Assembly: GCF_041261205.1 (NCBI RefSeq) | Contig: NZ_JBGCCH010000004.1 | Location: forward strand, 372,001-436,000 | Direction of reading: 5' to 3' | Length of the DNA: 64,000 bases | DNA from: Catenulispora sp. MAP5-51 | Lineage (GTDB): Bacteria > Actinomycetota > Actinomycetes > Streptomycetales > Catenulisporaceae | Shown here: in pieces, positions 12,863-18,330 of the stretch | Numbering within the stretch: the first letter of the stretch is position 1 | How the letters are laid out: every line of letters begins with the position of its first letter | Translations under genes and position numbers: made by a program | Notes under the pieces: model-generated | Database searches by the model: none | What the model saw: only the letters and a program-made list of their open reading frames with translations | Told to the model about the DNA's origin: nothing

Positions 12863-12888
12863 GGAATACCGCTGTCCCCCACTCGGTT
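12863..12888 (+). promoter_or_regulatory. Sigma-R (SigR/SigH) type promoter of sigR
   Basis: GGAAT (12863-12867), exactly 18 bp, then GTT (12886-12888): the thiol-stress sigma-R consensus GGAAT-N18-GTT. Transcription should begin near 12895. It lies just before sigR, giving positive autoregulation as known in Streptomyces coelicolor. Confidence 0.85.
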
Positions 12889-12937
12889 GTACCGCGTGAA
12901 CCCTCAAGGGTCCGACCACGTTGTCGAGGGGACAGGA

Positions 12938-13720
12938 ATGACTTTGGCACTGAAGCAGCGCCGTCCGGCAGTCAAGATCGATTTGTCGGCGGCCACGCCT
13001 TGGATAAGCTCTTCGGGTACCCCCGAGGAGGTGAGGACGGTCGCCGTGACCGCTGACGACGCACGTGGCGAGGCCGTCATTACCGAGGCCGTGTCACCCG
13101 TGGAGAAGGCCGCAGACGCGCCGCGCGTGGACCCCGGTGAATCCGAGGACGCCCGCAACGAGCGCTTCGAGCGTGACGCCCTCGTCTACCTGGACCAGCT
13201 GTACCCGGCCGCGCTGCGCATGACGCGCAACCCGGCCGACGCCGAGGACCTGATCCAGGAGACGTTCGCCAAGGCGTTCGCCTCCTTCCACCAGTTCCGC
13301 GAGGGCACCAACCTCAAGGCCTGGCTGTACCGGATCCTCACCAACACGTTCATCAACAGCTACCGCAAGAAGCAGCGCGAGCCCCAGGTCAGCCCGACCG
13401 AGGAGATCGAGGACTGGCAGCTGGCCCGGGCCGAGTCGCACAGCTCGGCGGGGCTGCCCTCGGCCGAGACCGTGGCCCTGGACCACCTGCCCGACTCCGA
13501 CGTCAAGGAGGCCCTGCAGGCCATCGGCGAGGAGTTCCGCATCGCGGTCTACCTGGCCGACGTCGAGGGCTTCGCCTACAAGGAGATCGCCGACATCATG
13601 GGCACGCCGATCGGCACCGTGATGTCCCGGTTGCACCGCGGGCGCCGGCAACTCCGTGCGATGCTTGAGGACTACGCGCGGGAGCGCGGCCTGGTGGCCG
13701 CCGCGTCGGAAGGGAACTGA
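12938..13720 (+). CDS. sigR: Thiol-oxidative-stress ECF sigma factor SigR
   Basis: ECF sigma factor for the disulfide-stress regulon of thioredoxin and mycothiol genes. Region 2 ([70 protein letters not shown]) and region 4 ([37 protein letters not shown]) are almost textbook SigR. Three in-frame starts are possible: GTG 12896 (near-leaderless), ATG 12938 (GAGGGGACAGGA upstream) and GTG 13046 (about 224 residues, near the 227 of S. coelicolor SigR). Long forms match the unstable sigma-R-prime isoform. rsrA follows 6 bp later. Confidence 0.95.
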
Positions 13721-14050: not shown

Positions 14051-14063
14051 CATGTTCCGGTCG

Positions 14064-14088
14064 GATCCACTCGTACGAGTGGATCTTT
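14064..14088 (+). terminator. Second terminator after rsrA: 22-bp palindrome plus T run
   Basis: 14064-14085 is a perfect 22-bp palindrome (GATCCACTCGT and its complement), followed directly by TTTT. It is less GC-rich than its surroundings. Together with the hairpin at 14022-14050 it makes a tandem terminator isolating sigR-rsrA from the HD-GYP operon. Confidence 0.7.
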
Positions 14089-14357
14089 TCTTGACTGGCG
14101 GCAGATTTTCCTCTGTACTCGTACGTGCTTTGATCCATTCCCGCGGTTCTGAGGGCCGCGGGTAAGTCATGGAAGACGGTGTTTCGGAATGCTCCATCTC
14201 ATCGGCGGCGGGCTCTGAGTCGGGCCATCCCGACTCCTGCCATCCCACAGGCCGGTGCCGCCCCATGTGCCGGCCTGTGGACCTGCCGGGCGTTTCGTGA
14301 CAGGGTTTTGCGTTGACCGGTGCTGACGCGCTCCCTGCGCGGACTAGAGGATGACCG
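14086..14357 (+). other. Intergenic leader of the HD-GYP operon
   Basis: About 270 bp without a gene. It holds one strong hairpin (CCACAGGCCGG at 14245-14255 with its complement at 14270-14280, loop 14256-14269) and the ribosome-binding site AGAGGA just before ATG 14358. TTGACC near 14314 resembles a -35 box, but no well-spaced -10 follows. No riboswitch class is recognised. Confidence 0.4.
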
Positions 14358-16691
14358 ATGCCGTTCTCCGTGCGGTGCTACATCTTCGGTTTGGTGGCGG
14401 CGGCCGTGACGGTCGACGCCACGTTGCCGCTGTCGCGAACCGGGCTGCCCCTGCTGCTGGCGCTGTGCGCGCTGGTGGTCGCGGCGGAGCGGCTCTCGCG
14501 GGTCCAGATCGGCACCTCGGGCTGGACCATGTCGGTGTCGCTGGTCGTCACGCTCATCACCGTGCTGGTCCTGCCGCCGCCGGGGGCCGCGCTGGTCGGC
14601 CTGGCCAGCTCGGTGCCGATGCCCCGGCAGCCGAGCTGGACCTGGACCAAGCAGACCATCAACTCCGCGATGTCGAGCCTGATCCCGGCCAGCGGCTCGG
14701 CCGTCTGCTACCTCGCGGGCGGCCACGATTCCAGCCACTTCCTGTACTTCCCGGAGTTCCTGTGGCCCGCCGCCGCCGCGTTCACCACCTGCCTGGTGGT
14801 CAACGCGCTGGTCATCGCCAGCTATGTGGGGCTGGCCACGCACCACCGTTTCGTGGACGCCCTGCGCGGCGACATCCGCCGTGCGACCATGCCGTACTAC
14901 TCCTCGGGCGTGCTGGCGCTCATCTTCCTGTCGCTGTGGGACGACATCGGCTGGTACACCGCGCCGCTGGTGGTCGTGCCGATGTACATCGCGCACTGGA
15001 GCCTGTCGCAGTACGCGAAGGAGAACGCGGCGCACGAGGGGACGATCGCGGCGCTGGTGCAGGCCGTGGAGATCAAGGACTCCTATACCCGCGGCCACAG
15101 TGAGCGGGTCGCGCGCGGCGCGGAGATGCTCGCCGAGCAGCTGAAGATGCCGCAGGACCGCCTGGCGATGCTCCGCTTCGCCGGGTTGCTGCACGACATC
15201 GGCAAGCTCGGCGTCCCCACCCGTCTGCTCACCAGCACCGGGGGTCTGACCGAGGAGGAGTTCAAGCTCCTGTGCATGCACCCCAACCACGGGGTGGCGG
15301 TGCTGCGCGACATCCGCTTCCTGACCGAGGTCTACGAGGGCGTCCTCTACCACCACGAGCGTCTCGACGGCCGCGGCTACCCGACCGGCAAGTCCGGCGA
15401 GCAGATCCCGGAGTTCGCCCGCATCATCGGCGTCGCCGACGCCTTCGACGCGATGACCTCCACCCGCTCCTACCGCGCGGCCCGCTCGGTCGAGGAGGCG
15501 GTGGCCGAGCTGCGCCGCGGCGCCGGCACCCAGTTCGACCCGGTGCTGGTCCGCGCCTTCGAGGACGCGCTGGAGTTCGCCGAGCGCGCCGGCAAGCCGT
15601 GGGTGCCCACGGAGCTGGTGCCCGCCGAGCCCGCGCAGGACGACGGGACGAGCACGGCCGCGTCGAGCCCGTGGCCGCTGCCCAAGCGGGTGCCGGGCTT
15701 CTCCTTCGCCGACCACGACGACCCCTTCGTCCCGGTGGAGTGGTTCTCGACCTGGTACCCGAGCTGGCTGACGCCCGAGGGCGAGCCGGGCCCGGACGGC
15801 GAGGGGCAGGTCGGCGGGATCCCGGGCCAGCGCGCGGGCGAACCGGAGCCGGCGGTCGCCGAGATCGAGGCCGTGGTGGAGGCCGTGGTGGAGGCCGAGG
15901 TGGGGGCCGTGGTGGAGGCCGTGGCCGAAGCGGACCTCGACGACGGCTGGTCGGAGCGGATGCACTCGGCCGTGGTGCGCGAGCCGGAGCCGGAGCTCGA
16001 CGAGGGCTGGGCTTGGGACGCGGAGCGGGGTGCGGTCGAGGCGGAGGGTGGCGAGGCTGAGCCTGAACCCGGGTCCGAACCCGAGTCGGATCTAGAGGCT
16101 TCAGTCGAGGATCATTCGGTGACGCTGGAGCAGCCGACAAAGTCCGAGCCCGCGCCCGAGCACCCCGCCGGGAACGCCACCGCGGCACCGTCCACCCGCT
16201 GGCCGGTCGACCCCGGCCTGAACGGCGAACCCCGCGGCTCCATGCGCGTGCGCACCCCGACTCCGGCCGCCGACGGCGATCCGCGCGGTACCGGCACCGT
16301 GTCGGCCGTCGACGGCTCTGCGGCTCCGGACGCTGATTTCGACCTGCGCAAGCCGGCCGCCCTCTGCCAGGGGGTCGCGGGCCCCGCCGTCGAGCCGGGA
16401 GACGCGGCCGAGGACACTGTGGCCATGCCCAAGGCCGGCGACCCCGAAGCGTGGACCCCCTCACCGGAGCCGTGGGTCGCCTCCGAGTCGTCCGCCGAGG
16501 TCCCCGGGGCTCCGAAGGCCGGCGACCCGGCCGACGCCGACGGCCGCTCCGGGCCGTCCCTGGGCTCGGCGTGGTTCGCGCGCGGCGCGGGCGGCTCTTC
16601 CCCGACGCTCCACTTCTTCGGCCCCGGCGACAGCAGTCCGTGGCCGCCGCGCGACCCCGACGCGAAGGACTCCGAGGAGTCCCCTGCATGA
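14358..16691 (+). CDS. Membrane HD-GYP phosphohydrolase with long disordered tail
   Basis: 777 residues. An N-terminal membrane region (about 1-215, five to seven helices) precedes an HD-GYP domain (about 225-420) with H in GHSERVARGAE (about 247), the metal-binding pair in FAGLLHDIGKLG (about 276), HPNHGVAVL, YHHERLDGRGYP and IIGVADAFDAMTS. All metal-ligand motifs and the GYP triad are present, so phosphodiesterase or related phosphohydrolase activity is plausible; c-di-GMP as substrate is inference. Residues about 430-777 are low complexity, rich in Glu, Pro and Ala, with AVVEA-type repeats. ATGA overlap with the next gene. Confidence 0.88.
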   Translation: MPFSVRCYIFGLVAAAVTVDATLPLSRTGLPLLLALCALVVAAERLSRVQIGTSGWTMSVSLVVTLITVLVLPPPGAALVGLASSVPMPRQPSWTWTKQTINSAMSSLIPASGSAVCYLAGGHDSSHFLYFPEFLWPAAAAFTTCLVVNALVIASYVGLATHHRFVDALRGDIRRATMPYYSSGVLALIFLSLWDDIGWYTAPLVVVPMYIAHWSLSQYAKENAAHEGTIAALVQAVEIKDSYTRGHSERVARGAEMLAEQLKMPQDRLAMLRFAGLLHDIGKLGVPTRLLTSTGGLTEEEFKLLCMHPNHGVAVLRDIRFLTEVYEGVLYHHERLDGRGYPTGKSGEQIPEFARIIGVADAFDAMTSTRSYRAARSVEEAVAELRRGAGTQFDPVLVRAFEDALEFAERAGKPWVPTELVPAEPAQDDGTSTAASSPWPLPKRVPGFSFADHDDPFVPVEWFSTWYPSWLTPEGEPGPDGEGQVGGIPGQRAGEPEPAVAEIEAVVEAVVEAEVGAVVEAVAEADLDDGWSERMHSAVVREPEPELDEGWAWDAERGAVEAEGGEAEPEPGSEPESDLEASVEDHSVTLEQPTKSEPAPEHPAGNATAAPSTRWPVDPGLNGEPRGSMRVRTPTPAADGDPRGTGTVSAVDGSAAPDADFDLRKPAALCQGVAGPAVEPGDAAEDTVAMPKAGDPEAWTPSPEPWVASESSAEVPGAPKAGDPADADGRSGPSLGSAWFARGAGGSSPTLHFFGPGDSSPWPPRDPDAKDSEESPA

Positions 16692-18025
16692 ACCACGCCA
16701 AGCCCCCGAGCCACCGGGCCTTCGAGGCCGACAGCGACGCGCAGACGGCCTGGGCGCAGAGCAACCCGCTGCTGATCGTCCTGGCCTGCTTCGTGGCGTT
16801 CGCCGCGGTCGCCGCCTGCGCGGTCCACGGCTTCGACCAGCCCGGCTACGCCCTCGCCTTCGGCGCGATCATCGCCGCCGGCGAGGCCTTCCGGGTGCGG
16901 CTGCCCGGCGGGCGCGAGGCGGCGCCGCTGGGGGCGGCCACCGGCCTGGCCTACGCCGTGCTCACCGAGGTCGGCCACCAGCCGGCGCTGCACAACGCGT
17001 CGCAGGCGGTCGCGGTGGCGGCGTTCGGCTTCCTGGTCGGTTCCGTGCCGCACCTGGCGGTCCGGCGGCCGGCCACCCTGGACTACACCGCCCGCCGCTT
17101 CCTCATGGTCGCGCTCACCGCGTGGCTGTTCCGGATGTTCTACCTGCGCTGGGTGCTCGGCACCCGGGTCGACAACCCTCGGCTGCTGCAGCCGGACCCG
17201 CTGGACCCGACCTTCCTGAGCCGGCACCTGCACAGCCTGGCGGTGGGCTCGGCGACCGCCGGGTTCCTGCTGCTGGCCATCGTCGGCGACGGCGTGGTCG
17301 GCTCGATCCTGCAGGCCGGCCAGCACCGGCGCCCGATCCTGGCCGCGGCCCGGGACGAGGCGACCTTCACCACCCGCGTCGGGCTGGCCGTGGTGGCCAC
17401 CACTCTGCTGGTCTGCCTGGCCTCGCGCACCATGTCCATCTGGGTCCTGCCGGCCCTGTGCCTGCCGCTGGCCTTCACCCAGCTCGCGCTGCGCCGCTAC
17501 GCGCGCATCAAGGAAGTCCACCTGGAGACGATCAGGGCCCTGTCCCGCATCACCGAGGTGGCCGGCCTGACCCAGCCCGGGCACGCCCGCCGGGTGGCCC
17601 GCACCTGCCAGCGCATCGGCCGCGAGCTGGGCCTCAGCGAGGCACAGCTGCTGGACCTGGAGTACGCCTCCCTGATGCACGACATCGGGCAGCTCTCCGT
17701 CGCCGAGCCGGTGCACGGCGGCCGCACCGCGCCGCTGTCCCTGGTGCGCCAGCGCGAGCTGGCCCGGGCCGGCGCCGAGGTGATCCGCCGCGCCGGCGCC
17801 CTGGGCAACGCCGCGGAGATCGTCGAGCACCACCCCGACCCGTTCGGCGCCGCGGGCCCGCTGCCCAGCCGCATACTGCGGGTCGCCAACGACTACGACG
17901 ACCTGGCCGGCGCGCAGCCGGAGTCGGCCGAGCGCACCGAGGCGCTGCGCCACATCCGGCTCGGGCTGGCGGTGCACTACGACCCGGCGGTGGTGGAGTC
18001 GCTGAGCCGGATGGTCGGGGAGTAA
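16688..18025 (+). CDS. Membrane protein with degenerate HD domain, partner of the HD-GYP protein
   Basis: 445 residues, overlapping the HD-GYP gene by 4 bp. Membrane helices lie at about 25-110 and 140-285. The C-terminal HD-like domain has HARRVARTCQRIG, YASLMHDIGQLSVAEP (about 329; the HD pair is kept, but the GK of HDIGK is GQ), IVEHHPDPFGAAGP where the GYP motif should be, and ILRVANDYDDLAGA. Topology and order mirror the upstream protein, so it probably arose by duplication. It may be an altered-specificity enzyme or a regulatory partner. Confidence 0.8.
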   Translation: MNHAKPPSHRAFEADSDAQTAWAQSNPLLIVLACFVAFAAVAACAVHGFDQPGYALAFGAIIAAGEAFRVRLPGGREAAPLGAATGLAYAVLTEVGHQPALHNASQAVAVAAFGFLVGSVPHLAVRRPATLDYTARRFLMVALTAWLFRMFYLRWVLGTRVDNPRLLQPDPLDPTFLSRHLHSLAVGSATAGFLLLAIVGDGVVGSILQAGQHRRPILAAARDEATFTTRVGLAVVATTLLVCLASRTMSIWVLPALCLPLAFTQLALRRYARIKEVHLETIRALSRITEVAGLTQPGHARRVARTCQRIGRELGLSEAQLLDLEYASLMHDIGQLSVAEPVHGGRTAPLSLVRQRELARAGAEVIRRAGALGNAAEIVEHHPDPFGAAGPLPSRILRVANDYDDLAGAQPESAERTEALRHIRLGLAVHYDPAVVESLSRMVGE

Positions 18026-18114: not shown

Positions 18115-18330
18115 GTGGCCGAGGAAGTCCGCGCCGAGATGGTGGCCAACGTGTGGAAGATCGTGGTCGCCGAGGGCGACGACGTCGAGGACGGCGACAC
18201 GATCGTGATCCTCGAGTCGATGAAGATGGAGATCCCGGTCCTGGCCGAGGTCTCGGGCAAGGTGTCGCGCCTGGGCGTGGCCGAGGGCGACGTGGTGCAG
18301 GAGGGGGACCTCATCGCCGTGATCGGCTGA
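18115..18330 (+). CDS. Small biotin/lipoyl-attachment carrier protein
   Basis: 71 residues, essentially one biotinyl domain: AEMVANVWKIVVAEGDDVEDGDTIVILESMKMEIPV and VSRLGVAEGDVVQEGDLIAVIG. The lysine of ESMKMEIP is the expected biotinylation site, and the domain matches the carboxyl-carrier type of acyl-CoA carboxylases. No carboxylase subunit is adjacent; the BsaP-like protein that supports biotin synthase lies 94 bp downstream on the other strand. GTG 18115 follows GAGGGA at a suitable distance. Confidence 0.9.
   Translation: MAEEVRAEMVANVWKIVVAEGDDVEDGDTIVILESMKMEIPVLAEVSGKVSRLGVAEGDVVQEGDLIAVIG

What the first reader, a model, noticed from the sequence alone, without database searches (positions are those of the whole stretch)
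14358..18025. Paired HD-GYP and degenerate HD membrane proteins with a long disordered tail
Two coupled membrane proteins share layout, but the second has lost the GYP and HDIGK residues. The first has a roughly 350-residue acidic, repeat-rich C-terminal tail that is unusual for HD-GYP enzymes. The pair may be an active enzyme with a pseudoenzyme partner, linking nucleotide second messengers to the cell envelope. They sit just downstream of sigR-rsrA.
Basis: partly seen in the sequence, partly recalled or inferred. Interest (0 to 1): 0.52.

Follow-up and report, generated by a model that had tools for sequence, protein, structure and literature searches.

The report
Ancient HD-GYP enzyme with pseudoenzyme partner
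Two neighbouring genes make a membrane enzyme that probably destroys the bacterial signal molecule c-di-GMP and a related membrane protein that has lost key catalytic residues; the pair is already described in Streptomyces as HdgA and HdgB, but it turns out to be kept together widely across its bacterial phylum.

Summary
The pair is real. hdgA (14358-16691, 777 aa) has an intact HD-GYP domain; hdgB (16688-18025, 445 aa, ATGA overlap) a degenerate one. The pair is known: Al-Bassam et al. 2018 (PMC6205966) named it hdgA/hdgB in Streptomyces. New here: (i) in 296 class genomes, membrane-type HdgA occurs in 91 and HdgB in all 91; (ii) 40 of 40 regions picked elsewhere in the phylum hold the tandem pair, and 32 of 32 sampled HdgB form one group; (iii) rsrA lies upstream in 82 of 82 class regions long enough to show it; (iv) nucleotide contacts (GYP Tyr, RSYR Tyr) are gone from all 128 HdgB examined, while metal ligands eroded gradually; (v) both membrane halves resemble ECF S-components; (vi) a tail motif D[HDN]DDP in 50 of 89 class tails. 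The long acidic tail is peculiar to the window's family, longest in its genus. Best reading: c-di-GMP phosphodiesterase plus obligate non-catalytic regulatory partner. Complex and activity are untested.

The parts
12863..12888 (+). sigma-R-type promoter-like site (GGAAT-N18-GTT) before sigR
   Evidence: pattern scan; consensus recalled, not from a call
12887..13720 (+). sigR open frame (family match from residue 85 on, so the true start is probably later)
   Evidence: TIGR02947 350 bits
13727..14008 (+). rsrA, anti-sigma factor
   Evidence: TIGR03988 99.2 bits
14020..14096 (+). two terminator-like hairpins with U runs between rsrA and hdgA
   Evidence: RNA fold z -5.1 and -3.8
14358..16691 (+). 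hdgA, membrane HD-GYP protein, 777 aa
   Evidence: name from PMC6205966
14421..14957 (+). HdgA residues 22-200, membrane part with ECF S-component-like fold
   Evidence: model m9555af54615b
15024..15587 (+). HdgA HD-GYP domain (HDIGK 15192-15206, GYP 15375-15383, RSYR 15465-15476)
15588..16688 (+). HdgA acidic low-confidence C-terminal tail
15711..15725 (+). tail motif DHDDP (residues 452-456)
16688..16691 (+). ATGA start-stop overlap of hdgB and hdgA
   Evidence: sequence; same spacing in 62 of 91 class pairs and 45 of 79 named pairs, starts chosen by script
16688..18025 (+). hdgB, membrane protein with degenerate HD-GYP domain, 445 aa
17498..18022 (+). HdgB degenerate HD domain (HDIGQ 17678-17692; Asn401 codon 17888-17890)
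18115..18330 (+). biotin/lipoyl-binding carrier protein, downstream neighbour
   Evidence: NF004547 125.9 bits

Best explanation
HdgA is a membrane-bound c-di-GMP phosphodiesterase: an S-component-like membrane domain leads through a long stalk helix into a catalytic HD-GYP domain. HdgB is its homologous tandem partner whose HD domain has lost the residues that hold c-di-GMP and, in this class, half of the metal ligands; it is kept as a dedicated regulatory subunit, most likely pairing with HdgA through stalk and HD domains and gating it according to what the membrane domains sense. Shown here: intact site in HdgA, regularly altered site in HdgB, strict pairing, one HdgB group in the tree, purifying selection on both. 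Inferred: c-di-GMP as substrate, hetero-association, gating, ligand sensing. The long tail is a family-specific addition.
For: HdgA: all 8 metal ligands (E or D at the first) in 87 of 88 class members; K283 in 89 of 90, GYP 91 of 91 rows present; equivalents of DvhD's c-di-GMP contacts K520, Y523, P567, R650, Y652 in 86-87 of 88 and Y621 in 88 of 88. Class HdgB: Q for K in 94 of 94, N for the VAD Asp in 87 of 94, HD and the upstream H in 94 of 94; HP His in 0 of 88, GYP Tyr 0 of 88, RSYR Tyr 0 of 88. Membrane-type HdgA in 91 class genomes, HdgB in all 91; of 4 genomes with HdgB only, 3 end at a contig end and one has an HdgA shortened in front. Phylum: 40 of 40 regions hold the tandem pair (chosen for an HdgB-profile match); 32 sampled HdgB are one side of a branch at 99%. 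dN/dS of HdgB 0.16-0.40, HdgA core 0.19-0.28. GGDEF proteins in 93 of 95 HdgB genomes against 162 of 201 others (p 2e-5 without correction for relatedness); one of the two exceptions (G178) has the only full-length class HdgA with changed catalytic His and Lys. One same-order HdgB lost most of its membrane part but keeps the altered HD domain and the ATGA overlap.
Against: No binding or activity data. Published BACTH text reports HdgB homomeric interaction and names no HdgA-HdgB contact (its supplementary figure not seen). Deletion of hdgA or hdgB in S. venezuelae gave no developmental phenotype (PMC6205966). The other GGDEF-less genome (G048) keeps an intact HdgA. HdgA plus HdgB as one clade is not recovered in the free tree and not rejected (p-AU 0.21). 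5 of 27 genomes of the Streptomyces-like genus g2 lack both, so the pair is dispensable. Outside the class 15 of 40 second genes keep 7 of 8 metal ligands and 7 of 40 the Lys, and 8 of 40 score slightly better with the HdgA profile, so inactivity is not certain there.
Confidence: 0.48

Rival explanations
1. HdgB's HD domain still works on another ligand or substrate: the kept E, H, HD and the new fixed residues form a different site (another hydrolase, or a metal or nucleotide sensor).
For: Class HdgB: E290 90 of 94, H299, H331, D332, Q335 94 of 94, G345 and T347 94 of 94, N401 87 of 94: too regular for mere loss. Outside the class 15 of 40 keep 7 of 8 metal ligands.
Against: The Lys position is R, M, K, H, A, V, S or L outside the class and the Asp position mostly Ser (23 of 40), so no single new site is kept across the phylum; 0 of 128 have all 8 ligands.
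Confidence: 0.22
2. HdgA and HdgB act as separate homo-oligomers in one pathway; the operon only sets their ratio.
For: Homomeric HdgB interaction in BACTH (PMC13232838); hdgB and hdgA differ in transcript levels in S. venezuelae (PMC6205966).
Against: Strict pairing, fixed order, commonly overlapping genes.
Confidence: 0.17
3. HdgB is a c-di-GMP receptor of the DvhD kind (degenerate HD-GYP that binds but does not cut).
For: DvhD HD-GYP (9rbz) is the first Foldseek match of the HdgB model (E 3e-3, tied with 4mcw); DvhD shows that degenerate HD-GYP domains can be receptors (PMC13090378, passages).
Against: Equivalents of K520, Y523, Y621, Y652, R653 in 0 of 88, R650 in 1 of 88, P567 in 3 of 88 class HdgB.
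Confidence: 0.08
4. The pair belongs to the sigma-R thiol-stress response.
For: rsrA upstream on the same strand in 82 of 82 class regions with enough sequence; sigR found in 80.
Against: sigma-R-like promoter in 5 of 86 hdgA upstream regions against a mean of 1.8 (maximum 7) in shuffles, none in the window; terminator-like hairpins between rsrA and hdgA; stop-to-stop distances of 1.2 to 6.3 kb.
Confidence: 0.1

Closest known systems
HdgA/HdgB of Streptomyces venezuelae (vnz24090/vnz24095), PMC6205966
   Same: Adjacent genes, likely operon, 6TM-HD-GYP followed by 6TM-degenerate HD-GYP lacking GYP (passages)
   Different: The window HdgA has a tail of about 370 residues with DHDDP; the 22 same-order tails read are 38-138 residues and 0 of 22 have D[HDN]DDP. 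The S. venezuelae sequence itself was not compared
V-cGAP3 of Vibrio cholerae (PDB 5z7c)
   Same: A second, weaker HD-GYP-like stretch precedes an active domain in one chain; best PDB sequence match of the HdgA domain (E 6e-44)
   Different: One chain, order reversed; soluble as far as recalled
DvhD of Desulfovibrio vulgaris (9rbz, 9rc0), PMC13090378
   Same: Degenerate HD-GYP domain on a stalk behind a membrane segment; first Foldseek match of HdgB
   Different: DvhD lost HD but kept c-di-GMP contacts; HdgB kept HD and lost the contacts
ECF transporter S-components and 5TMR receptors (PMC11109136, passages)
   Same: Membrane parts of both models align to S-components (16 of 50 rows for HdgA, Z 10.3-14.1; 7 of 50 for HdgB, Z 10.2-13.0)
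   Different: No clear sequence family: weak Pfam MASE9 in 17 of 49 HdgA (best E 2e-5), none for HdgB; the term HD-GYP does not occur in that paper's main text

Membership tests
HD-GYP phosphodiesterase (HdgA) | metal ligands E/H, HD, H, HH, D | tested here: met
   87 of 88 class members, the window among them
HD-GYP phosphodiesterase (HdgA) | HDxxK and GYP motifs | tested here: met
   K 89 of 90, GYP 91 of 91 class rows present
HD-GYP phosphodiesterase (HdgA) | hydrolysis of c-di-GMP or cGAMP | not testable with these tools
   needs an assay
HD-GYP phosphodiesterase (HdgB) | catalytic Lys, HP His, VAD Asp, GYP | tested here: not met
   K, HP His, Asp and GYP Tyr each in 0 of 88 class HdgB
HdgA/HdgB pair of Streptomyces | membrane HD-GYP gene followed by membrane degenerate HD-GYP gene | tested here: met
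HdgA/HdgB pair of Streptomyces | sequence orthology to vnz24090/vnz24095 themselves | not tested
   S. venezuelae sequence not fetched; 22 of 27 genomes of genus g2 of the same order (taken as Streptomyces by inference) carry the pair
DvhD-type c-di-GMP receptor (HdgB) | canonical c-di-GMP contact residues | tested here: not met
   0 of 88 for Y523, Y621, Y652, R653 (and bridging K520), 1 of 88 for R650
ECF S-component fold (membrane parts) | S-component fold | tested here: met
   best Z 14.1 over 162 residues of a 164-residue chain; HdgB 13.0; near 13 is borderline for helical bundles, so moderate support
ECF transporter | EcfT/EcfA module and transport | not tested
   not looked for
sigma-R regulon | sigma-R promoter before hdgA | tested here: not met
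   none in the window; 5 of 86 against 1.8 shuffled

The most novel reading that the evidence does not exclude
HdgA-HdgB is an ancient, phylum-wide heteromeric membrane receptor of Actinomycetota in which two S-component-like sensing domains control one active HD-GYP site through an obligate partner that first lost nucleotide binding and then, in the main class, its metal site; a tail motif D[HD]DDP[TS] recruits a further component. Its role was missed because Streptomyces, the genus studied, has lost the motif and sometimes the pair.
Probability: 0.4. Interest if true: 0.62.

Novelty: new member of a known kind. Interest (0 to 1): 0.42.

Why it matters
[quoted passage not shown] Over the class the picture differs: in 296 genomes the membrane-type enzyme was never found without its degenerate partner, the sampled partners form one group in a tree over the phylum, and several genomes of 1.2-1.7 Mb keep both. 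That makes a clean test case for why a pseudo-phosphodiesterase is kept, offers two candidate sensor domains whose ligands can be sought, and gives a short tail motif as a handle for a partner.

Tried and rejected
Rejected: HdgB as decaying duplicate (dN/dS like the HdgA core; Gln fixed in 94 of 94). Rejected: HdgB as DvhD-type receptor by the known contacts. Rejected as general: the long tail as a family trait of HdgA (38-138 residues in 89 class tails; longer only in the window's own bacterial family). Rejected: sigma-R promoter before hdgA.

Mended on checking: an earlier count aligned the lost HP His with an Ala; the joint alignment puts Ile there (79 of 88) and the His is absent in 88 of 88. 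The same check showed that outside the class many second genes keep most metal ligands, which one search had not shown; I lowered the best explanation from 0.5 to 0.48, the homo-oligomer rival from 0.18 to 0.17 and raised the first rival from 0.2 to 0.22 for that reason.

Led nowhere: genes between rsrA and hdgA differ between families and were not identified; no NCBIfam model above its cut-off for either protein; no Pfam family for the HdgB membrane part. Galperin and Chou 2022 on HD-GYP domains (PMC9017333) is not held. Paper searches combining HD-GYP with sigR, SCO5216-5219 or S-component, and rsrA with HD domain, gave nothing, in an open-access library only; a search for MASE9 gave nothing relevant. 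No heterodimer model: the structure tool takes one chain.

Dropped or limited: 4 HdgA fragments (96-310 aa) and HdgB outside 395-470 aa were left out of the profile sets (88 rows each, window included) but counted where a column was present; tails were read only where HHE..DG.GYP matched (89 of 91 class HdgA, 72 of 79 named), and 8 of 14 family loci (one is the window). The tree used 84 rows chosen by hand. The 40 phylum regions were picked from the best HdgB-profile matches outside the class, and 'A' and 'B' there are first and second gene by position, so 40 of 40 is no rate for the phylum.
Full report
What is there. hdgA spans 14358-16691 (777 aa) and hdgB 16688-18025 (445 aa); stop and start overlap as ATGA. 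Both match Pfam HD_5 (1.9e-44 and 6.2e-12). AlphaFold2: HdgB mean pLDDT 85, pTM 0.82; HdgA residues 1-493 pLDDT 80, pTM 0.68, with 429-493 under 50. In both, one long helix runs from the membrane part into the HD domain (172-239 in HdgA, 217-291 in HdgB). Upstream are sigR and rsrA, downstream a biotin/lipoyl carrier protein. Two terminator-like hairpins lie between rsrA and hdgA.

The pair is known. Al-Bassam et al. 2018 (PMC6205966; passages) describe hdgA and hdgB in S. venezuelae as 6TM-HD-GYP and 6TM-degenerate HD-GYP lacking GYP, very likely one operon, both in the membrane fraction, not involved in developmental control, with orthologs in 76 and 79 of 93 strains. A 2021 table for S. ghanaensis lists both genes (PMC7911125, passages). 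A 2026 paper (PMC13232838; passages, section 9) reports homomeric HdgB interaction. My searches found no paper that places the pair next to sigR or follows it outside Streptomyces, within an open-access library.

Co-occurrence. In 296 genomes drawn from the class, HdgB (E<1e-20) is in 95 and HdgA with its membrane part in 91. All 91 have HdgB. Of the four with HdgB only, three are at contig ends and one (G089) has an HdgA shortened in front. In 94 fetched regions an HdgA frame, whole or partial, was found in 91, always on the same strand. The 4-base overlap is the commonest spacing: 62 of 91 and 45 of 79 named pairs, with starts chosen by script. rsrA lies upstream on the same strand in 82 of these 91; in the other nine the sequence ends within 2.6 kb of the hdgA stop. 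Of 27 genomes in genus g2 of the same order, 22 have the pair and 5 neither.

Phylum. An HdgB profile matched 128 of 296 genomes drawn from the phylum at 1e-20, many listed matches covering only the HD part. I fetched 40 regions outside the class from strong matches; each holds two such genes in tandem on one strand, the first scoring far higher with the HdgA profile, the second lacking GYP and scoring higher with the HdgB profile in 32 of 40, slightly lower in 8. In a tree of 84 HD domains the 32 HdgB rows are one side of a branch at 99% support; HdgA plus HdgB as one clade is not recovered and not rejected (p-AU 0.21).

Catalytic residues. Of eight metal ligands, class HdgA keeps all in 87 of 88 (E or D at the first), outside the class 37 of 40. 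Class HdgB keeps exactly four in 83 of 88, typically E, H, H and D; HP His and VAD Asp are in 0 of 88. Outside the class the second gene keeps 7 of 8 in 15 of 40, 6 in 5, 5 in 10, 4 in 9, 3 in 1; none keeps all. Lys is in 0 of 88 and 7 of 40. Common to all 128: no Tyr of GYP, no Tyr of RSYR, no equivalents of K240 and Y243. So nucleotide contacts are gone everywhere examined, while loss of metal ligands is graded and deepest in the class. In HdgA outside the class the P of GYP is in only 13 of 40 and the Lys in 34 of 40. Against the c-di-GMP contacts named for DvhD (PMC13090378, passages), HdgA keeps nearly all and class HdgB almost none; K582 is not kept by HdgA either.

Substrate. GGDEF proteins occur in 255 of 296 class genomes and in 93 of 95 with HdgB. 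Of the two exceptions, G178 has the only full-length class HdgA with changed catalytic His and Lys; G048 has an intact one. So one case fits c-di-GMP as substrate and one does not.

Membrane part. Foldseek and VIA-align place both membrane domains on ECF S-components. HdgA: 16 of the 50 rows shown, best Z 14.1 over 162 residues; HdgB: 7 of 50, best 13.0 (Foldseek alone only E 8). No other membrane fold is among the VIA rows shown. Such values are borderline for helical bundles, but two models of different sequence agree. S-component-like receptors are in print (PMC11109136, passages). Polar residues are conserved in these parts (HdgA N102 and N149 49 of 49; HdgB E66 54 of 55, R69 and R76 55 of 55).

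Tail. In the class the part after the cut point (window residue 397) is 38-138 residues (89 tails). Of family loci read, five of the window's genus (the window included) have 309-462, three of sister genera 141-215. D[HDN]DDP is in 50 of 89 class tails (shuffle mean 0.07) and 66 of 72 named ones, most often 33-34 residues after the cut and followed by T or S in 97 of 116; in the window it is at 55. The 22 same-order tails have it in 0. Its function is unknown; a docking site is my guess.

Selection. Among Catenulispora relatives dN/dS is 0.16-0.40 for HdgB, 0.19-0.28 for the HdgA core, 0.26-0.47 for the tail (simple Nei-Gojobori; several HdgB comparisons partial, and two of the eight rows probably repeat a species).

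Verdict. New here are breadth, strict pairing, the single HdgB group, the sigR neighbourhood, the pattern of residue losses, S-component-like membrane parts and the tail motif. The mechanism remains inference.

Noticed in passing
window 17828-17833 (HdgB residues 381-382): The window HdgB has HH in columns where other class members mostly have R/Q then Q; the second aligns with the first of HdgA's paired His, which 1 of 88 class HdgB keeps.
   Followed up: partly
L122 6465-7166: HdgB of a same-order genome (G234) has lost most of its membrane part but keeps the HD signature and the ATGA overlap.
   Followed up: yes
L123 (G178) HdgA: Genome listed as 100% complete without a GGDEF match; its HdgA is the only full-length class one with changed catalytic His and Lys.
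   Followed up: yes
   Followed up: no
window 14056-14130: Palindrome GATCCACTCGTACGAGTGGATC followed by TTTT, with ACTCGTACG repeated downstream.
   Followed up: partly
L037, L043, L064 between rsrA and hdgA: An oppositely oriented similar open frame of unknown kind (LRLLPELE-like start) lies between rsrA and hdgA.
   Followed up: no
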